A DNA stretch of 43,468 nt, taken from a virus. The DNA lies in the IMG/VR virus record IMGVR_UViG_3300025666_000015, positions 1 through 43,468 of that record. One strand, written 5' to 3'. Made by a program: the position numbers and the translations under genes. Shown piece after piece: positions 9,812 to 43,223 of the stretch. Numbering within the stretch: the stretch's first letter is position 1; every line of letters begins with the position of its first letter. The notes below the pieces were generated by a model. That model was given only the letters and a program-made list of their open reading frames with translations, was not told the DNA's origin and searched no databases.

Positions 9812-10854
9812 TTCAATTGTCCGAAGATCAAAAAAACTTAATTTTAGAAAGTTTTAAAACTGACCCTAATATTATAAACATTACTAGAACCGTTTTTGCA
9901 GACGAAAATCTTGACGGACGCTCCAAGGAAGGCAGAACTGTCACGAAATTTCTAGCCAAAAATGGTTATAAAACCAAAACCACAAAACATGATAAGGCGA
10001 GCGATATAACCCTCACCAAAGAACAGTTATCTGAAATAGAAGAGTTTAAAAGAGATGGGATGAACACATCAGAGATCGCTGATATTGTTTTTAAAGAACC
10101 AGTAAAAAGACTTTCTAAGGAGTGGCGTGTTATTAATGAGTTGGTTAACCAAGAAAGAGAAGAAGAAAAAGAAAAAGGCCAAGATTCCTCTGGAAACTAT
10201 ATTGCACCACAAGCCATCTCCAGATTAATTAAAAAGATTAATGACTCAACTGGTGTCGGGTTGGAAGAGGGAAAGCTATCTAGGGCAGCACGCACTTGTT
10301 GTGATAAACTGCGGATAAATCTTAGTAACTCTAGATTTGTCGCTATTGTTAATAATTATATCAGCCCCAGAGACAAAGAGTTATTCGAGCAAGAATTTAT
10401 ACGACTTACTTGGGACAAGCCAGACCTAACTGCTGACGAACTTAATTTATATATGAATGTGGGCAAGGAAATTATTAACTTAGAGTTAATTACTGGTCAT
10501 TTGCAAAAATTAAACGAGATGTTTGAGGATGCTGGTCACCAAGATGAAATGACTGTCCGTTTAGCGGAAATTATCAAAGCCAAAAGTTCCGAATATCATC
10601 AATGCGAGACTCGTATCGAAAATCTAACAAAGAAGCTCCAGGGTGACCGTGGTACGCGTTTAGCAAACCAACAAAAGGACACAGCATCATTTCTATCTAT
10701 TGTCCAATTATTTCAAGAAGAAGAGGAAAGAAAAAATATGGTCAAGATAGCCGAAATGCAAAAACAAGTAATCAAAAAGGAAGCCAAACGTCTAGAGGGG
10801 ATGTCTGCGTGGAAAGCTAGAGTTTTGGGAATTGGTATCGAAGATGTCTTATAA
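9808..10854 (+). CDS. HTH DNA-binding protein, candidate small terminase subunit
   Basis: A 348-residue, largely helical, highly charged protein. The first 125 residues contain two helix-turn-helix-like repeats, each with an SxxQxxxI or TKEQLxEI helix, an INITRTVF or TSEIADIVF helix and an RS.EGR.V.K or RLSKEWRVI helix. The rest is long helices with probable coiled coil (about 200-340) ending in WKARVLGIG. It lies directly upstream of the nuclease and large terminase genes, where small terminase subunits usually are, and DNA-binding repeats plus an oligomerising helical part fit that role. It is longer than most small terminases, so the name is a proposal. An AAAAGGA sequence lies about 9 nt before the ATG. 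Confidence 0.6.
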   Translation: MIQLSEDQKNLILESFKTDPNIINITRTVFADENLDGRSKEGRTVTKFLAKNGYKTKTTKHDKASDITLTKEQLSEIEEFKRDGMNTSEIADIVFKEPVKRLSKEWRVINELVNQEREEEKEKGQDSSGNYIAPQAISRLIKKINDSTGVGLEEGKLSRAARTCCDKLRINLSNSRFVAIVNNYISPRDKELFEQEFIRLTWDKPDLTADELNLYMNVGKEIINLELITGHLQKLNEMFEDAGHQDEMTVRLAEIIKAKSSEYHQCETRIENLTKKLQGDRGTRLANQQKDTASFLSIVQLFQEEEERKNMVKIAEMQKQVIKKEAKRLEGMSAWKARVLGIGIEDVL

Positions 10855-11761
10855 ATGCAAGGAATGCGGATCAGAATTTACTTCTGAAAAATCCCTACAT
10901 GGTCACCTTAAAGCTCATAAAATTTATGTGGCAGATTATTATGTAAAACACTACCCGCGTTTCAACAAACTTAATGGTAACCCTCTACCGTTCAAGAAGA
11001 AGGAGGAGTATTTTGAGAATGATTTTATTAATAGATCTCAATTAGTTGCTTGGTGCAAAAAATCCGATCCTAAAGAAGTTAAAGAATATATAATTGAATT
11101 AGCCAAAAGGAGAATCAAACAAAAGAATTATAAAAATGCTCCGTTCCATCTTGAGCTTTTAAAAAGACAATTACCAGACCTGGATGTTTTTAAGGAGCAT
11201 TTTGGTACATATACAAAAGCTTGTGACGTGATGGGAGTTGAGCCAATATTTTATAAAGGCATGCCTAAAGAGTTTAAGGAAGATATTGATGTCGAAGTAT
11301 TAATCGATACTAGAGAGCAGCAGCCATTAGAATTTCCCAAATCCCAAATTTTAAAATTAGATTTTGGAGATTATACATTAGGTGGTAAGGATTTTTCTAA
11401 TACATTCGTAGATAGAAAGAGTTCTGGCGATTTTTTATCTACCTTTGGGGGGCAGGTTGATAGATTTAGAAAAGAAATGAAAAGATGCGTAGAGCTTGAT
11501 AGTTATATGTATATAGTTATAGAAAAACCAATAAAAACAATTGAAAAGGAAGCTATTTTTACAAAAGGTAGAAGAGCGCCAAAACTGAGTTGGGTATTCT
11601 CTAACATGATTTCAATACAACACGAGTTCGCTGGTAATTGTCAATTTATTTTTACTGACAACAGAATACATAGCGAAGAAATTATTCCGAAGCTTTTATA
11701 TTTAGGCGACAAACTTTGGGATGTAGATGTACAATATTTTTTAGATAAGGAGCAAATATGA
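10844..11761 (+). CDS. C2H2 zinc finger fused to ERCC4/XPF-type nuclease
   Basis: The 305-residue protein begins with a classical C2H2 finger, C5-x2-C8-x12-H21-x3-H25. Residues 150-290 form an ERCC4-type nuclease: IDTRE (154-158), GDYT (175-178) and VDRKS (189-193) give the D...GDY...(V)DRKS active-site signature of XPF/Mus81-family enzymes, which cut branched or flap DNA. The middle (about 40-140) is helical linker of unknown role. The chosen ATG at 10844 overlaps the upstream stop by 11 nt; a TTG at 10832 would add four residues but is less likely. The gene sits between the candidate small terminase and the large terminase, so trimming of branches or gaps in replicating DNA during packaging is a reasonable inference. 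Confidence 0.85.
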   Translation: MSYKCKECGSEFTSEKSLHGHLKAHKIYVADYYVKHYPRFNKLNGNPLPFKKKEEYFENDFINRSQLVAWCKKSDPKEVKEYIIELAKRRIKQKNYKNAPFHLELLKRQLPDLDVFKEHFGTYTKACDVMGVEPIFYKGMPKEFKEDIDVEVLIDTREQQPLEFPKSQILKLDFGDYTLGGKDFSNTFVDRKSSGDFLSTFGGQVDRFRKEMKRCVELDSYMYIVIEKPIKTIEKEAIFTKGRRAPKLSWVFSNMISIQHEFAGNCQFIFTDNRIHSEEIIPKLLYLGDKLWDVDVQYFLDKEQI

Positions 11762-26034: not shown

Positions 26035-29000
26035 ATGGCTAGGGAAAAAATAGGAATAGAATTTGATCCAGTAATCACCGCTAAGGTTGATGCTGCTTTG
26101 TCAAACATCAAATCCAAGGCTAAGCAAGTTGATTTTAGCGGTGGAGCAGCGTCACTTAATAAATTAACTAGACCGTTAGGTAAAATAACTGGCCAAGCTG
26201 ACGAATTTAGAAAGTCGTTAGAGGCGTCAAATGCGCGTGTCCTAGCTTTCGGTGCTTCTGTTGCTGTTATAAATAAATTATCTCAAGCTTTTGGCGCTCT
26301 CGTCTCAAATACGATCAAGGTCGAGGCTACTTTTGCAAAAATTAATACTATTCTTGGTGGCACTGAGAAGCAAATCAAACAATTTGGTTCTGGTATATTC
26401 GATGTAGCTAAAAATACTGGCACAGCTTTTGATCAAGTTGCTGAAGGCGCTCTAGAATTAGCTCGTCAAGGTTTAAGTGTTGAGCAATCACTAGAAAGAG
26501 TTTCTGTCGCTTTAAAATTAGTCCGTGTGGCTGGCATAGATTCTCAGAAAGCTGTTTCTGGAATAACCGCTGCGTTTAAGGGTTTTGAAGGTTCTGGCTT
26601 AACTGTAGCCCAAATTGGTGATAGACTTTCTCAAGTAGATACCAAGTTTGCTACATCCACCGAAAGTTTGATAGAAGGTTTGAAAAGATCTTCATCTTCA
26701 GCTAGAGCTGCTGGCGTTTCTTTTAATGAGTTACTTGCTATCGTAACAACTGTTGAAGAAAGAACTCAGAGAGGTGGAGCTGTTATTGGTAATGCTTTCA
26801 AGACCATTTTTACTAGAACCAAAAGAGCGGATGTTTTATCAACTTTCGACGAATTAGGTATAGCTGTTTTAGATTCGGAAAAAAAGATCCGCCCGTTTAT
26901 ACCACTAATGGAAGACTTAAAGAAAAAAGTCGAAGAGTTGGGTGGCGTAAAAAGTTTAGAAGGCTCTGCTATTTTAGAAAAAGTAGCTGGAGCTAGACAG
27001 ATAGAAAATTTACTTACTCTTTTCGAAGATTTAGGTAATGAAGGCAGCAAATTTACTCAAGTTTTAGAAGTAATAGGTGGCTCTGTTGGTAGTTTAGATG
27101 CGAAAAATGAAGCTTTAAATGTAACTTTAGAAGCTTTAATTAACAATGTAAAAATCTCTGCTCAAGAATTTTCTTCTATATTGGGGGATATTGGTTTTGC
27201 TGATGCAGCCAAAGACCTCTTAAGAACCGTTTCGGGTGCTATTGAAAAGATTTCAACTTTACTCCAAGGGGATTCTGTTGGATCTAAATTCGCTAAAGGT
27301 ATAGTTTCTGGCATCGGGGCTGTATTAACTGGTCCTGGTTTAGCTTTAGTCGGAGCTATATTTGTTAAATTATTTGTTGATTTAACGAAGTTTGGTGTGA
27401 CTTCTTTGAAATCTCTTTTAGGGGTAAACAAAGCGGCTCAACAACAAAGTATTTTACAAAAATCTATTCTTCAAACTCTTTTACAAAACGAAGATATACA
27501 AAGAAGAGTTTTATCTCTAAGTGGAGATAAAGCTGCTCAAGAATTAGCTTTATTAAAAATTTATAATCAGCAAGCAGCATCACTTGCAAGAGTTCAACAA
27601 GTAGCCGCCACGGTTACTCCAGCGCTATTTGGGGCTGGTTTAAGAGGTGGAGAATCTGGCGTTAGAAAGCCAGGCGGTAGAGCTGCTGATGGATATGTGA
27701 GTGCTGAATCTCGTGATGTTTCTCGCGGGGTGGGTGGTGCGCCATCTAGCTCTAAAGTCGTTTCAATTCCAAATTTTGCTTTTGGTGGCGGTAAGCGGGG
27801 AACGATGGTAGCTAATAGTAGCGAATATTTTGTACCAAATTATGCTGGTGGTGGGGATGCTATTTTTAATCGCAATATGGTTAGAACAATGGGTCTACCT
27901 TCTGGTGCTAAAAAAATAAATGCTGCTGGTGGTTTTATCCCGAATTTTGCTAAAAAACAACAAAAGTCCAACGGAAAGCCTCCTATATATAATTCAAAAT
28001 ATGCTATGGTTGTGCCGATTCCAGGCGGAAGTCCAAGGCAAACCGCCCTTGCTAAAAGTGGGCAGTCATACCAGTTTGATGTGTTTGGTTATTCAAAAAC
28101 CAATTTAAAATCAAAAAATCAAGATGAGCTTATAAAAGATGTAAAAGATTTTGGGATAAATTTGGCCACAAGGGAAGCTCTTACTATGACTAATGGCGAA
28201 CCAACCCCTGAATCAAAAACGAAATTGGGTAATGCTGGGTCCGTTTCTTCTTTGGCTGGAGTTATATTTGAGGCAGCTATAAGTTCTCTTTTAAAGTCTC
28301 CTGAATTTGATGGGGGGCAAACAGCAACGTTTGACTTTATAGGAGATAGAGCCATTGAAGATTTAAGTGGCTTGTTCCCATCTTTAACAGATCAAAAATT
28401 TGTAGAAGCTAAAATTGGTATCAGTCCAGATATCAATAAAAGTATGGCCAACAAAATAGAGAAGTTTAGTGGCGGCGGCAATAGAATATCAAAAGATGCT
28501 TCAGGAGAAATAAAAGCAGCAAAAGTTCGGGCTGGAGGAGTGTTTAGTGCAAGCGGCCAGAAAAAAGAATTTGGCCCTACAAAACGATCATCTAGGGGTT
28601 TTATCCCTAATTTTGCTGGAGATGGATTTTTAAATAAGACGGTTACTACCGCTCTTGAGGATGCTATATCAAGAGAAAAAGCCGCAGGACTTTCTGTTAA
28701 TCAAATAAGAATAAACCAAAGTGGCAAGCTTCGCAATTCAAGGAACCCACAAGGATTGGCCGTCACAAACACCAGAGACGAACCAACAGGAAGAATCCCT
28801 AGCGGTAGATCGGCTGGCGGTTTTATACCAAATTTTGCTTCACCAAACGATAGTCCTGAAAAAAGCCTAGAAAGAGTGGCTAAATCTGGAGATAAACTTA
28901 ATAAGTCTAATACAAACCAGCTGGGTACAATACTAGCGCTGCAAACCGTTTCTTATGGTTTGAGTAGTGCGTTTGGTACAATTACAAACGAATCTAGCGG

Positions 29001-32000
29001 TTTTGCAAGAAGACTATCTGATGCCGCTGACGCTACTCAGGTATTTATTACCGCACTAATATCACTACAAACAGTTGGATTACTTGGTGGCGACGCTAAA
29101 GCCGCATTTGCTAAAATAGCTAGCAGTCTTTTGGGTGTCGGAAGACTCAAAAGTGGAGCAAAAGCTTTGAAGGCTGGGTTTGGTGCAGGCAAGGCAGCAG
29201 CTGCGACAGGCGTAGGTAAAGGGGGCATAGATTTGGCGGCGGGTGTATTCTCTAAAAAAGCCACATCAACAGCAGGCGCAGGTGTTCTTAAAACTTTATT
29301 TAAAGTCGGTGCAGGTTTTTCTAGGTTTTTGCCAGTTATAGGACCTTTGATTTTAGGTTTTACAGCTCTTAATGGTTTGATTAAAGTCGCTACTGGTACA
29401 AGTGGTATTGGATTAATAACTAGTGCTTTTGGTAAATCAGCTAAAGCTGCGGAAAGAGAGGCGGCTGCTAGAGCAAAAAATACAACATTCCTAGAAAAAG
29501 CCGCTGCAGCTGGCGATATAGAAGAAAAACAAAAGCAAAAAGCAGCAGCGCAAAAACAAATTGATCGTGGCAGCACTAAATTAGAAAGGCTTAAAGAAAG
29601 GGAGACTTCTTTAAATGCGGTTCTTGGTAAAGGTAAATCAGGTCGCCTCACTGGCAAAGATTTGACTCAACAAAGGAGCGATGCTGGGTTGACAGTAGGG
29701 GAGAGTGCTAACACGAGACTTAGAGAAACACAAGAAGAAATAAGCCGCATCCAAGAAAGGTTGGATGTTCTTAATAAAGCAAAAATAGCTCTAGATATAG
29801 GGATAGATGCGTCTGTTCTGGGATCATATGATGCGGCAACTGATAAGGTTCTTTCTATCCGTGATCTTTTTAACGATATCAAATCTTCAGCTCAAGAATC
29901 TTTTCTGAATTCAGAAGCTAACCAACAAGCAGATCAATTAGCGAATACATTTAGACAAGCGCTAACAACAAACCAAACACTTAAAACAGTTTTATCTCTT
30001 CAAAATGACGAGTTGAAGGCTCAGGCAGATTTTATAAATAACACACAAAAAAATCTCAACGACGTTAAAGATACAGTGTTAGACACAATAACAGGTCTTG
30101 ACGAACAAAACCAGATTGAAGCGGAGTTGGCGGCGAAATTCAAAGCAGCTTTAGAATCAGCGACAGATACACAGGGTATCCAAGAAGCTGTAAACCTCCT
30201 CAAAAAAGATGAAGTTGGTTTGGCTACTCAATTAACCGTCGAACTGGATAGCCAAATAGGGGGTTATCAAAGAGCTAATGTAGAGGCGGCAGCTCTACTT
30301 GCTGCAGAAGAAGAAAGGTTAAAAACCCAAAGAAACATAACTCTAGAGCAGTTAAAAAGACAGACCGTAGAAACCAAAGTGGAGGTTGATAGGGTTGTAG
30401 CAAAAAAACAAGGTAGAAATACTAGCGAGATATCTCAAATTACCTCCCAGGCTAAGCTGAATGATTTATTAAAAGAGAAGGATGATTTAATTTTAGAAGG
30501 AGTCATGCTTACTCTAAAGCAAAACAATCTTAATTCAAAGATATCTTCCGAGGCTAAGGCTTTGCTAGCAATAAATCAAGAGGGTTTAAAGGTTGTTGAA
30601 AATAAACTTTTTATTGCACAAACGAACTCTGATATTTTAAAAGGCGATGTTGCACTTAACGCAACTTTAGTAAGCCTACAATCAACCCAAACCGCTAATT
30701 CTAATATAAGAAATTTAGCAAACGCTAAAGCTAATGGTTTGTTAGACCAACAGATAGCAAATTCCGCCATACTGACATCGGCACAGTTGAGGACTCTGGA
30801 GCTTAAAAAGCAAGAATTATCATTCGGTGAACAACAAGCAGATATTGAAGACAAAAAGGAGGTTATAAGTCAAAAACTAGCGAGCGCCAACTTGACACAG
30901 ACGTCATTAACTAATGAGCAAATTAAAGCGCTGGAAGATCAATTGTCTGTGCTAGAAAACCAATCAGATGTGTTGGAAGTGAACCTCGAAACAGTGAGAA
31001 ACATAAAAAATGAAGCGGACAACGTCAATTTTACAAAAGGTTTAAATATTGGTCTCGCATCTCTAAAAGATAAGGTAGACAACTTTAAACTCGAACTAGG
31101 GACAGAGGTCCCATTAAAATTCTCAGAGAATTTAGGAACAGCATTAATTGATGCTGTAAGCGGGGCCAAAGATTTAGATGATGCTTTATCCGATGCTGGA
31201 AGAAATTTCTTAGGCTACATGAGGGATGCGTTTTTACAACAAGCAGCAGCTCAAGCTACCACGGGTTTATTTGATGGCGTGAAAAAAGTCAGTGGTGGAA
31301 TTAAAGATATTTTTGGTATCGGATCTCCCTCATCCACATCTACGCCAGCAAATGGAGTTTCAGGAGGAACGGAAGCTGCAAAATCAGGCGCAGAGGCTGG
31401 CGCAGAAGCACTTAAAGACGCAGCCTGTAAGAAGCCTTGCGGCACAAAAACAGATCCTCTTTATGTAGTTATGACCGCAGCCCCATCAGCTGCTGGTGCT
31501 ACAGCTGGGGGTGAGCGTGACCTTAATCAATTTAAAGTCGGAGGTGGAGAGAAAGTTCCAGTTGGCGCGGACGGCGAACCAACTACTGCGGGTGAAAATG
31601 GATTTTTCACCAATTTAAAAACTAAATTTACTAACGTCTTCTCCACTGTGAAAGGCAAACTGGGGGGTATTTTTGGTGCGTTGGGAGAGAAGATGGGCGG
31701 TATTTTTGGTGCGTTAAAAGATAAAATGGGGGGTATTTTTCAAAGTCTAATGGGAATGTTTAGTGGCGGCGGCGGCGGTGGCGGCGGCGGTCTCGGCGGC
31801 ATACTTAAAGCTGGACTTGGGATGGTGACGAGCTTTTTTTCACCAGGTGCTGGTTCGGCGATAAACGGCGCGGTTGGTGCTGCTCCAGCTGGGATGGCTT
31901 TCGCCGCTAATGGAGGGTTAATTGGTTATGCTGGTGGCGGTTCAGTCAGCCCCATTGCAAGGGGTGGCCCAATGTCATCAACCGATACTGTTCCAGCGAT

Positions 32001-32364
32001 GCTTACTCCAGGAGAATTTGTTGTTAAAAGATCCGCTGTAGAGCAATATGGGACAGAATTTTTATCTAGCTTGAATGATGGAGCGCTACCTATGAAAAGA
32101 TTCCAACAAGGTGGGGCTGTTTCATCTGTATCGCCAATTATTGGTGGGTCAGCTGGTGGCAGTAGCGTGAGTAACCAAGTTTCTAATAGTTCTGAATTTG
32201 TTTTTAATATAAAAGGAGATGGATCTAAATCTGAAGATGGATCTACCGATAATGGGACACCAGAATCACAAACAGAATTTGCGAACAAGGTTAGATCAGC
32301 TGTTACTACAGTTATCCAAGAAGAGTCTAGAACTGGCGGGACTTTAAGTTATTTATATAAATAA
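26035..32364 (+). CDS. tail tape measure protein with IPNFA repeats and nuclease-like domain
   Basis: At 2109 residues this is the longest gene here. Residues 1-400 form a TP901-type tape measure core (KIGIEFDPVITAKVDAAL, then ARVLAFGASVAVINKLSQAFGALVS, and a helical region with GAVIGNAFKTIFTRT). Hydrophobic segments near 420-460 and 1085-1110 may span membranes. The pentamer IPNFA recurs at 578, 635, 857 and 931, with a variant VPNYA at 600. Between 640 and 856 lies a domain with E746, D767 and E791-x-K793, the spacing of a PD-(D/E)XK nuclease. Long coiled coils (1170-1730) follow. Near the C-terminus are three 11-residue amphipathic repeats, a glycine run and the usual DTVPAMLTPGEFVVKRSAVEQYG ending. 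By the rule of about 0.15 nm per residue the tail would be near 300 nm, less if the inserted domain does not contribute. Confidence 0.92.
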   Translation: MAREKIGIEFDPVITAKVDAALSNIKSKAKQVDFSGGAASLNKLTRPLGKITGQADEFRKSLEASNARVLAFGASVAVINKLSQAFGALVSNTIKVEATFAKINTILGGTEKQIKQFGSGIFDVAKNTGTAFDQVAEGALELARQGLSVEQSLERVSVALKLVRVAGIDSQKAVSGITAAFKGFEGSGLTVAQIGDRLSQVDTKFATSTESLIEGLKRSSSSARAAGVSFNELLAIVTTVEERTQRGGAVIGNAFKTIFTRTKRADVLSTFDELGIAVLDSEKKIRPFIPLMEDLKKKVEELGGVKSLEGSAILEKVAGARQIENLLTLFEDLGNEGSKFTQVLEVIGGSVGSLDAKNEALNVTLEALINNVKISAQEFSSILGDIGFADAAKDLLRTVSGAIEKISTLLQGDSVGSKFAKGIVSGIGAVLTGPGLALVGAIFVKLFVDLTKFGVTSLKSLLGVNKAAQQQSILQKSILQTLLQNEDIQRRVLSLSGDKAAQELALLKIYNQQAASLARVQQVAATVTPALFGAGLRGGESGVRKPGGRAADGYVSAESRDVSRGVGGAPSSSKVVSIPNFAFGGGKRGTMVANSSEYFVPNYAGGGDAIFNRNMVRTMGLPSGAKKINAAGGFIPNFAKKQQKSNGKPPIYNSKYAMVVPIPGGSPRQTALAKSGQSYQFDVFGYSKTNLKSKNQDELIKDVKDFGINLATREALTMTNGEPTPESKTKLGNAGSVSSLAGVIFEAAISSLLKSPEFDGGQTATFDFIGDRAIEDLSGLFPSLTDQKFVEAKIGISPDINKSMANKIEKFSGGGNRISKDASGEIKAAKVRAGGVFSASGQKKEFGPTKRSSRGFIPNFAGDGFLNKTVTTALEDAISREKAAGLSVNQIRINQSGKLRNSRNPQGLAVTNTRDEPTGRIPSGRSAGGFIPNFASPNDSPEKSLERVAKSGDKLNKSNTNQLGTILALQTVSYGLSSAFGTITNESSGFARRLSDAADATQVFITALISLQTVGLLGGDAKAAFAKIASSLLGVGRLKSGAKALKAGFGAGKAAAATGVGKGGIDLAAGVFSKKATSTAGAGVLKTLFKVGAGFSRFLPVIGPLILGFTALNGLIKVATGTSGIGLITSAFGKSAKAAEREAAARAKNTTFLEKAAAAGDIEEKQKQKAAAQKQIDRGSTKLERLKERETSLNAVLGKGKSGRLTGKDLTQQRSDAGLTVGESANTRLRETQEEISRIQERLDVLNKAKIALDIGIDASVLGSYDAATDKVLSIRDLFNDIKSSAQESFLNSEANQQADQLANTFRQALTTNQTLKTVLSLQNDELKAQADFINNTQKNLNDVKDTVLDTITGLDEQNQIEAELAAKFKAALESATDTQGIQEAVNLLKKDEVGLATQLTVELDSQIGGYQRANVEAAALLAAEEERLKTQRNITLEQLKRQTVETKVEVDRVVAKKQGRNTSEISQITSQAKLNDLLKEKDDLILEGVMLTLKQNNLNSKISSEAKALLAINQEGLKVVENKLFIAQTNSDILKGDVALNATLVSLQSTQTANSNIRNLANAKANGLLDQQIANSAILTSAQLRTLELKKQELSFGEQQADIEDKKEVISQKLASANLTQTSLTNEQIKALEDQLSVLENQSDVLEVNLETVRNIKNEADNVNFTKGLNIGLASLKDKVDNFKLELGTEVPLKFSENLGTALIDAVSGAKDLDDALSDAGRNFLGYMRDAFLQQAAAQATTGLFDGVKKVSGGIKDIFGIGSPSSTSTPANGVSGGTEAAKSGAEAGAEALKDAACKKPCGTKTDPLYVVMTAAPSAAGATAGGERDLNQFKVGGGEKVPVGADGEPTTAGENGFFTNLKTKFTNVFSTVKGKLGGIFGALGEKMGGIFGALKDKMGGIFQSLMGMFSGGGGGGGGGLGGILKAGLGMVTSFFSPGAGSAINGAVGAAPAGMAFAANGGLIGYAGGGSVSPIARGGPMSSTDTVPAMLTPGEFVVKRSAVEQYGTEFLSSLNDGALPMKRFQQGGAVSSVSPIIGGSAGGSSVSNQVSNSSEFVFNIKGDGSKSEDGSTDNGTPESQTEFANKVRSAVTTVIQEESRTGGTLSYLYK
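31657..31755 (+). repeat. three tandem 33-nt repeats in tape measure gene
   Basis: Three 11-residue units (K(L/M)GGIF(G/Q)(A/S)L plus two residues) follow one another with near-identical DNA, each with a GGTATTTTT core. They are directly followed by a run of glycine codons (GGC/GGT). The units would form one amphipathic helix. Confidence 0.8.
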
Positions 32365-42141: not shown

Positions 42142-42216
42142 AAGAAAACTTATTATAATACGAAAAATCAGTAAGTCAAGTAAAAAAATTTATTTTTCAA
42201 AATTTGCTAAAAATAA

Positions 42217-42244
42217 TTGACATAGTGGCTCAATCGTGTAAATT
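42217..42244 (+). promoter_or_regulatory. sigma70-like promoter for nrdB overlapping a GTGTAA motif
   Basis: TTGACA (42217-42222), a 16-nt spacer and TAAATT (42239-42244) are followed after exactly 7 nt by the ATG at 42252, implying a leaderless mRNA. TCGTGTAA (42234-42241) overlaps the -10, so the late-type element may also act here at 10 nt spacing. Confidence 0.55.
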
Positions 42245-42251
42245 GATTCAT

Positions 42252-43223
42252 ATGTTATTTGAAGAACAAATCTCTAGAAAACCGAACCTCTATCCTTGGA
42301 CAGAGGAATTTGTAAACGCCATGCATAATGGATTTTGGACTGATAAGGAGTTTAACTTTCAGTCAGATGTCCAAGACTTTAAGATAAATATGAATGATCA
42401 AGAAAGGGAGATGGTTAAAAAAACACTTTCTGCCATTGGTCAAGTCGAAGTATCTGTAAAAAAGTTCTGGGCAAACCTAGGTGAACATCTACCACACCCA
42501 GGAATCACTGATCTTGGTTACGTTATGGCTAACATTGAGGTTATTCATAATAACGCCTATGAAAGACTTTTGAGCGTCCTCGGATTAGAAGATGCCTTTG
42601 AAGAAAACCTTAAACTCGATATCATTAAAGGAAGAGTTGATTACTTGAGAAAGTATCTCGACAAATGCTATAAAGACGAAAAGAAACAGTATGTATATTC
42701 TTTGATTTTGTTCACTCTGTTCGTGGAAAACGTTTCATTGTTTAGTCAATTTTATGTCATTAATTGGTTTAATCGATACGAAAACCTCCTAAAAGACACA
42801 GCTCAGCAAGTTGCATACACAAGCAAAGAAGAAGATATTCACGCAAAGGTAGGCACAAAAATAGTTAATGTTTTAAGGGAAGAATATCCAGAGATTTTTG
42901 ATGAAGACCTAATCTCTCGATTAAGAGAAGAGGCTGTTTGTGCTTTTGAAGCCGAGTCAAAAATTATTGATTGGATTATCGGAGATTATTCAAAAGAAAA
43001 CATCAGTGCAGATATTTTAAAAGAGTTTATTAAAAACAGACTCAACGAATCATTAAAACAAATTGGTGTGGATGAGGTTTTTGACGTTGACAAAGAAAAA
43101 ATAAACCTTACAATGTGGTTTGATGAAGATGTCTTGGGCAATTCCGCTACAGACTTTTTCTTTAAACGTCCAGTGGAATATTCCAAGAAGGACAAATCAT
43201 TTGACGAAAACGACTTATTCTAA
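42252..43223 (+). CDS. nrdB: ribonucleotide reductase class I beta subunit
   Basis: This 323-residue protein carries the metal-radical cofactor used to reduce ribonucleotides. Ligands and the radical site are visible: E66 (GQVEVSV), E96-x-x-H99 (NIEVIH), Y103 four residues after H99 as in the class I tyrosyl radical, E159 (LFVENVSLF), and E194-x-x-H197 (KEEDIHAKVG). The first ligand is Glu where E. coli NrdB has Asp84. The C-terminus (KKDKSFDENDLF) is acidic with a terminal Phe, as needed to dock on NrdA. The ATG at 42252 is preferred to an upstream TTG at 42204 because it begins the conserved protein and has a promoter 7 nt upstream. nrdA follows with a 1-nt overlap. Confidence 0.93.
   Translation: MLFEEQISRKPNLYPWTEEFVNAMHNGFWTDKEFNFQSDVQDFKINMNDQEREMVKKTLSAIGQVEVSVKKFWANLGEHLPHPGITDLGYVMANIEVIHNNAYERLLSVLGLEDAFEENLKLDIIKGRVDYLRKYLDKCYKDEKKQYVYSLILFTLFVENVSLFSQFYVINWFNRYENLLKDTAQQVAYTSKEEDIHAKVGTKIVNVLREEYPEIFDEDLISRLREEAVCAFEAESKIIDWIIGDYSKENISADILKEFIKNRLNESLKQIGVDEVFDVDKEKINLTMWFDEDVLGNSATDFFFKRPVEYSKKDKSFDENDLF

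What the first reader, a model, noticed from the sequence alone, without database searches (positions are those of the whole stretch)
27766..28839. PD-(D/E)XK-like domain in the tape measure delimited by IPNFA repeats
Five (I/V)PN(F/Y)A motifs lie at residues 578, 600, 635, 857 and 931. Between the third and fourth sits a 217-residue segment with E746, D767 and E791-x-K793, matching the PD-(D/E)XK nuclease motif spacing. The preceding and following segments are also bounded by IPNFA. Repeated identical pentamers at domain borders look like processing or sorting sites. The tape measure is ejected into the host with the genome, so an enzyme packed in this way could act on host DNA or defence at the moment of entry. 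Ejected enzymes such as lysozymes in tape measures are known; nuclease cargo with repeated border motifs is not, to my knowledge.
Basis: partly seen in the sequence, partly recalled or inferred. Interest (0 to 1): 0.85.

Follow-up and report, generated by a model that had tools for sequence, protein, structure and literature searches.

The report
Swappable nuclease cassette in tape measure
The ruler protein of this phage's tail carries a probable DNA-cutting enzyme set between copies of a short signature (GFIPNFA), and hundreds of uncultured phages use the same signature as the exact border at which whole enzyme cassettes are swapped in and out of that protein, which points to a modular store of enzymes delivered into bacteria at infection.

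Summary
The 2109-aa tape measure protein (26035-32364) has IPNFA at 578, 635, 857 and 931 and VPNYA at 600, and E746, D767, E791-x-K793 in between. Fold confirmation failed: the AlphaFold2 model (pLDDT 80) matched nothing, so membership is probable, not proven. The larger finding is the motif. 259 distinct ORFs from uncultured viral contigs carry two or more G[FY][IV]PN[FY][AS] copies. Homology between tape measures breaks at the motif, sometimes at nucleotide resolution: near-identical tape measures carry different cargo, or one cassette more or less. Other cassettes match GNAT, staphylococcal nuclease and HATPase profiles. Best reading: a motif-delimited cassette array of enzymes in the tape measure, probably delivered with the genome. 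No relative was found among isolated phages. Whether the motif is cut is untested.

The parts
26035..32364 (+). Tape measure protein gene, 2109 aa
   Evidence: PhageMin_Tail E 5e-26, PHROG tape-measure families to 1e-35
26374..26952 (+). PhageMin_Tail domain, residues 114-306 (conserved tape-measure N-terminal part)
27766..27780 (+). IPNFA copy 1 (residues 578-582), in the conserved anchor region before the cargo
27832..27846 (+). VPNYA copy 2 (residues 600-604), anchor region
27931..27951 (+). GFIPNFA copy 3 (residues 633-639), left border of the cargo; many other tape measures have their first motif at 620-650
27952..28602 (+). PD-(D/E)XK-like cargo domain (residues 640-856)
   Evidence: 181 homologous domains with invariant D and K; fold not confirmed
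28270..28272 (+). E746 (motif GxxFE): E 176, D 5 of 181
28333..28335 (+). D767: 181 of 181
28405..28413 (+). E791-A-K793, the (D/E)XK element: D 131, E 49, G 1; K 181 of 181
28453..28455 (+). K807, the later K/Q position: K 151, Q 29
28597..28617 (+). GFIPNFA copy 4 (residues 855-861), right border of the cargo
28618..28818 (+). Terminal module (residues 862-928) with the invariant pattern RE...NPxG..V.N..DE; where flanked by motifs on both sides it lies between the last two in 90 of 95 cases
   Evidence: no Pfam match
28819..28839 (+). GFIPNFA copy 5 (residues 929-935), end of the cargo region
28840..32361 (+). Post-cargo tape-measure region
   Evidence: no Pfam match for 28867-32361
31903..32052 (+). 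C-terminal GG-rich stretch (AANGGLIGYAGGG) followed by the common tape-measure GEFVVKR module; possible source of the GFIPNFA motif (inference)

Best explanation
This is a siphovirus-like tape measure protein whose region between the conserved N-terminal part (to about residue 570) and the long post-cargo part is a cassette array. An anchor motif at about 635 is followed by one or more exchangeable cargo domains, each closed by another A[AS]xG[FY][IV]PN[FY][AS] motif, and usually by one terminal module with an invariant RE...NPxG...N..DE pattern. The window's array holds one cargo, a domain with the complete PD-(D/E)XK signature, most likely a metal-dependent nuclease. Shown here: the motif is the domain border in hundreds of uncultured viral proteins; cassettes are swapped, gained and lost at it; the catalytic residues are under strong constraint. 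Inferred: the array travels inside the tail, enters the cell with or ahead of the genome as tape measures do, and the cargo acts there, because several other cargo types need cytoplasmic substrates (acetyl-CoA, ATP). The nuclease would then attack host or competitor nucleic acid or a defence component. The motif is selected at the protein level, either as a flexible or dockable joint that lets foreign domains be packed into the tape measure, or as a cut site that frees them.
For: Catalytic pattern in 181 domains; the most conserved columns of the alignment are K793, D767, G742 and E746. Couplings place the D767 strand antiparallel to the E791-K793 strand. Homology ends lie within 10 aa of a motif in 63% of 3971 cases, against 11% for uniform positions and 7% for slid motifs, with motifs masked before alignment. 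DNA breaks at the motif: L090/L290 have 95% and 99% aa identity outside and different cargo inside; at the left border 35/36, motif 21/21, then 10/42 nt identical; at the right border 12/36, 21/21, 42/42. L104/L320 differ by one whole cassette. Motif codons mostly follow the gene's own codon usage, so the constraint is on protein. Other cargo: GNAT, SNase (1.9e-9), HATPase. 73 of 106 near-complete tape measures carry the PD-(D/E)XK-like domain. T5 TMP is cut between its membrane stretch and its muralytic domain (PMC10038345).
Against: No Foldseek match to any PD-(D/E)XK structure, and the model puts a helix between the D and ExK strands with no clear first strand, which is not the textbook order. 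No Pfam, PHROG or PDB match names the domain. The coupling analysis is weak, with 157 effective sequences and conserved columns inflating scores. No protein evidence for ejection or cutting. No cultured relative was found.
Confidence: 0.6

Rival explanations
1. The domain is a structural or DNA-binding part of the tape measure, not an enzyme. The PD-(D/E)XK-like residues stabilise a fold or bind metal, and the motif is only a linker.
For: No fold match. Tape measures are structural, and many cassettes match no known enzyme.
Against: K and D invariant in 181 of 181, D/E alternation at 791 and K/Q at 807 are typical of an active site, while the rest of the domain falls to 13-28% identity for most members. 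Cassettes homologous to known enzymes sit in the same slots.
Confidence: 0.17
2. The nuclease serves the gene, not the infection: a homing-like PD-(D/E)XK enzyme that cuts the motif-coding DNA of rival phages and drives cassette exchange.
For: Cassettes swap exactly at the motif DNA. Homing nucleases sit in introns of the ICP1 tape measure gene (PMC10448857).
Against: Motif codons mostly follow background usage and differ by 2.5 of 21 nt between copies in one gene, which is poor for a cut site. 33 of 106 near-complete tape measures have no detected nuclease domain yet carry the motif. No intein signature: no HN before the motif, C/S/T after it in only 12%.
Confidence: 0.06
3. The motif is a processing site cut by a phage or host protease, or by the terminal RE/NPxG/DE module itself, so that the cargo is released as free enzymes. 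(This is a sub-reading of the best explanation, not exclusive with it.)
For: Nearly fixed heptapeptide at every border. T5 and lambda TMPs are cut during assembly (PMC10038345). Polyvalent proteins are thought to be split by their own peptidases (PMC5512222). The terminal module is present in 86 of 106 near-complete tape measures with invariant R, E, N, P and G.
Against: No protease was recognised in the window ORFs searched; no mass-spectrometry data. A dockable linker explains the same pattern.
Confidence: 0.35
4. The residue pattern and repeats are chance or compositional bias.
For: PD-(D/E)XK patterns are short and common.
Against: Shuffle test 5 against 0.0005; conservation in 181 homologues; 259 distinct multi-motif ORFs.
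Confidence: 0.01

Closest known systems
Polyvalent proteins of phages and conjugative elements (Iyer et al. 2017, PMC5512222)
   Same: One long virion-linked polypeptide that combines unrelated enzyme domains (nucleases, GNAT, ART, peptidoglycan enzymes) predicted to enter the host with DNA.
   Different: That paper's text does not mention tape measures and describes no border motif in the passages read; the carriers discussed are MuF, portal, N4 RNAP and relaxase-linked proteins. Here the carrier is the tape measure and a conserved heptapeptide marks every border.
Tme, tape-measure-related endonuclease effector of Streptomyces davawensis CIS (PMC11126660)
   Same: A tape-measure relative carrying a nuclease with shown activity.
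   Different: EndA-like DRGH nuclease at the C-terminus of a contractile injection system effector; single domain, no reported motif-delimited array.
Phage tape measures with muralytic domains (T5 pb2, TM4, SPbeta YomI)
   Same: Enzyme domain embedded in the tape measure; T5 pb2 is cut next to its enzyme domain (PMC10038345).
   Different: Those enzymes open the cell wall. Here the cargo includes nuclease, GNAT and ATPase types, in an interior slot; one relative, L067, also has a phage lysozyme further down.
PD-(D/E)XK nuclease superfamily
   Same: GxxFE...D...(D/E)xK...(K/Q) pattern.
   Different: No sequence or fold link to a known family found; a helix is predicted between D and ExK.
Protein mosaicism in phages (Smug et al. 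2023, PMC10684548)
   Same: Tape measures flagged as mosaic by sequence.
   Different: Those authors could not confirm genuine recent mosaicism in tape measures; here it is shown with borders at a defined motif.

Membership tests
PD-(D/E)XK nuclease superfamily | Conserved acidic D followed by (D/E)-x-K, with D/E interchange | tested here: met
   D767 181/181; 791 D131/E49/G1; K793 181/181
PD-(D/E)XK nuclease superfamily | Upstream helix glutamate and downstream K/Q often seen in Hjc/Mrr/exonuclease-type members | tested here: met
   E746 176E/5D; K807 151K/29Q
PD-(D/E)XK nuclease superfamily | alpha-beta-beta-beta-alpha-beta core fold | tested here: inconclusive
   AF2 pLDDT 80, no Foldseek match in PDB or BFVD; couplings suggest D strand antiparallel to ExK strand
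PD-(D/E)XK nuclease superfamily | Profile similarity to a known member family | tested here: inconclusive
   hhalign to UPF0102, Mrr, PDDEXK_1 below 1%, but UPF0102-PDDEXK_1 and Mrr-PDDEXK_1 also below 1%; no Pfam/PHROG match
PD-(D/E)XK nuclease superfamily | Metal-dependent nuclease activity | not testable with these tools
   Needs purified protein
Tape measure protein | Tape-measure profile match and longest gene of the tail region | tested here: met
   minor tail protein gene directly downstream
Polyvalent protein | Several unrelated enzyme domains in one virion-linked polypeptide | tested here: met
   Met for the family: cassettes with GNAT, SNase, HATPase and PD-(D/E)XK-like domains. The window's own copy has one recognised cargo.
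Polyvalent protein | Delivered into the host with the DNA | not testable with these tools
   Inferred from tape-measure biology
Intein or homing insert | Splice-site residues (C/S/T at the start, HN at the end of the insert) | tested here: not met
   No HN before any motif; C/S/T after the motif in 12%

The most novel reading that the evidence does not exclude
A widespread group of uncultured phages uses the tape measure as a programmable delivery rack: enzyme cassettes between GFIPNFA motifs are exchanged by recombination exactly at the motif, loaded into the tail, and freed at the motif when the phage ejects its genome, giving each phage a quickly replaceable set of anti-host or anti-defence enzymes that act before any phage gene is expressed. 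A PD-(D/E)XK-like nuclease is the commonest cargo found.
Probability: 0.35. Interest if true: 0.92.

Novelty: new variant of a known kind. Interest (0 to 1): 0.8.

Why it matters
It shows real cassette exchange inside tape measure genes, which an earlier survey could not confirm (PMC10684548), and gives a simple sequence tag for finding domains that phages probably deliver at the moment of entry. The unknown cassettes between GFIPNFA motifs are a ready list of candidate anti-defence or host-takeover enzymes, and the motif could be tested directly as a joint or cut site. It also bears on how folded enzymes fit in or leave a narrow tail tube.

Tried and rejected
Single-sequence AlphaFold2 of 640-856: pLDDT 33, useless. 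The second model with 51 homologues was better (pLDDT 80) but had no Foldseek match in PDB or BFVD. Profile search of PDB sequences gave only short lectin-like noise. A genome-contig scan of the motif gave mostly chance or unrelated single hits; two loci, L128 and L140, hold multi-motif proteins, so the motif is not a general bacterial one. The DNA-level site idea (recombinase site or homing target) is disfavoured by codon usage. Intein rejected. HAD, ADP-ribosyltransferase and kinase readings of some cassettes (DWDGT, LYRG, GSG motifs) were made by eye and were not confirmed by Pfam or PDB, so they are not claimed. Literature for the motif string itself: nothing relevant among the listed papers.

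Full report
OBSERVATION. The ORF at 26035-32364 (+) encodes 2109 aa and is a tape measure protein by Pfam PhageMin_Tail (residues 114-306, E 5e-26) and by several PHROG tape-measure families (to 1e-35). Five such motifs against 0.0005 expected in shuffles is not chance. The motif occurs nowhere else in the window.

THE MOTIF IS A FAMILY-WIDE BORDER. After removing duplicates there are 318 ORFs, 259 with two to eight copies. 217 of the 318 have a recognisable tape-measure N-terminal part; many of the rest begin inside the gene because the stored DNA starts there. The consensus is A[AS]xG[FY][IV]PN[FY][AS], with P and N required by the search pattern and G 98%, F at position 2 77%. Gaps between motifs run from 50 to 1249 aa. 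In 106 near-complete tape measures the first motif lies mostly at 530-560 or 610-650. In GTDB genome contigs a related pattern gave 27 hits, of which only L128 and L140 are multi-motif proteins.

CASSETTES ARE EXCHANGED AT THE MOTIF. When tape measures are compared pairwise, homology ends near a motif (median 6 aa against 65 for random positions). With motifs masked so that they cannot pull the alignment, 63% of 3971 ends lie within 10 aa of a motif, against 11% for uniform positions and 7% with motifs slid by 30-120 aa. These pairs are not independent. 79 swap-like pairs have all four borders within 25 aa of motifs. In L090 against L290 the flanks are 95% and 99% identical and the cassette between is different; at the left border DNA identity is 35/36 nt, motif 21/21, then 10/42; at the right border 12/36, 21/21, 42/42. 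L104 against L320 differ by one whole cassette between two direct copies of the motif. Over 49 left and 27 right junctions selected for an abrupt change, most breaks fall at the 3' end or the 5' end of the 21-nt motif respectively. Motif codons mostly follow each gene's own usage, with modest shifts at I, V and P, and copies in one gene differ by 2.5 of 21 nt, so the motif is kept for its protein sequence; it may still supply short homology for recombination.

THE PD-(D/E)XK-LIKE DOMAIN. The window's segment has close homologues (L017, L077, L016; 38-43% identity) and, by iterated profiles, 181 domains in 174 ORFs. Position by position: G742 180/181, E746 176 E and 5 D, D767 181/181, 791 D 131, E 49, G 1, K793 181/181, 807 K 151 and Q 29. 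K793, D767, G742 and E746 are the most conserved columns. Membership required only an overall profile score, so invariance of single residues was not forced, though the profile does favour them. Direct coupling analysis (157 effective sequences) gives its best strand pairing as antiparallel between the D767 strand and the E791-K793 strand (767-793, 768-792), as expected for a PD-(D/E)XK hairpin, but conserved columns inflate such scores. The domain lies between two motifs in 141 of 181 cases and has a motif inside it in 1. It is in 73 of 106 near-complete tape measures.

WHAT SPEAKS AGAINST CALLING IT SETTLED. AlphaFold2 with 51 homologues gave pLDDT 80 and pTM 0.71 with order three strands - three helices (E746 in the third) - strand (D767) - helix - strand (ExK) - helix (K807) - short strands. 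The helix between D and ExK is unusual, and Foldseek found no match. Profile-profile comparison with UPF0102, Mrr and PDDEXK_1 was negative, but UPF0102 and Mrr also fail to find PDDEXK_1, so this carries little weight. I put the nuclease assignment at about 0.75.

OTHER CARGO. Of 65 and 80 representative cassettes, Pfam recognises GNAT acetyltransferases (up to 3 members, best 2.6e-7), staphylococcal nuclease (two, 1.9e-9 and 2.7e-5), HATPase (3.7e-5) and weak P-loop matches; one more matches a PHROG endonuclease. Most are unknown. Enzymes that need acetyl-CoA or ATP would work only in the cytoplasm, which argues for delivery there (inference).

TERMINAL MODULE. Residues 862-928 of the window belong to a short module found 217 times in 213 ORFs, with R, E, N-P and a later N invariant where aligned; of 95 copies flanked by motifs on both sides, 90 lie between the last two. 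It has no Pfam match. It may be a fixed end-piece of the array; self-cleavage is a guess.

MECHANISM. Shown: motif-bordered, exchangeable cassettes in a tape measure; conserved catalytic pattern. Inferred from known biology: tape measures fill the tail tube and leave it ahead of the DNA; T5 pb2 is cut beside its enzyme domain (PMC10038345). Most likely the cargo enters the cell and acts at once. Whether the motif is a joint or a cut site is open (0.35 for cutting).

RELATION TO KNOWN WORK. The array works like the polyvalent proteins (PMC5512222), but on a carrier whose name does not occur in that paper. A nuclease on a tape-measure relative is known from the CIS effector Tme (PMC11126660). 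A survey of phage protein mosaicism suspected but could not confirm recent tape-measure shuffling (PMC10684548). No relative of the domain or of one short spacer module was found in 50,697 phage records; the tape measure itself matches isolates only in its N-terminal part at up to 29% identity.

VERDICT.

Noticed in passing
window 28618-28818; 217 copies in other loci: Short terminal module with invariant RE...NPxG..V.N..DE, usually once per tape measure between the last two motifs; no Pfam match. Could be an enzyme or an end-cap of the array.
   Followed up: partly
window 31903-32052: The tape-measure C-terminus has AANGGLIGYAGGG followed by the common GEFVVKR module; similar GG-rich stretches and GE[FY]V modules occur in relatives, and the GFIPNFA motif may descend from such a stretch.
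   Followed up: partly
L013, L034, L051, L086, L101, L118 and others: Several other 64-76 aa spacer families between motifs (e.g. ..RN.SQPTF.SAI.DHGG....YNSAEKVK.FPGM.QPAIMPP..), all ending in the motif, none with a Pfam match.
   Followed up: no
L067 4623-13244: Tape measure with PD-(D/E)XK-like domain, P-loop-like cassette, terminal module and a phage lysozyme (9e-19) further down in one 2874-aa ORF.
   Followed up: partly
window 10832-11761 and 42204-43223: ERCC4-type nuclease gene next to the large terminase, and a ribonucleotide reductase small subunit gene.
   Followed up: no
L130, L132, L136, L137, L139, L141, L146: Alicyclobacillus and related Bacillota carry a roughly 660-aa protein with a single, apparently unrelated GFIPNFA.
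   Followed up: no
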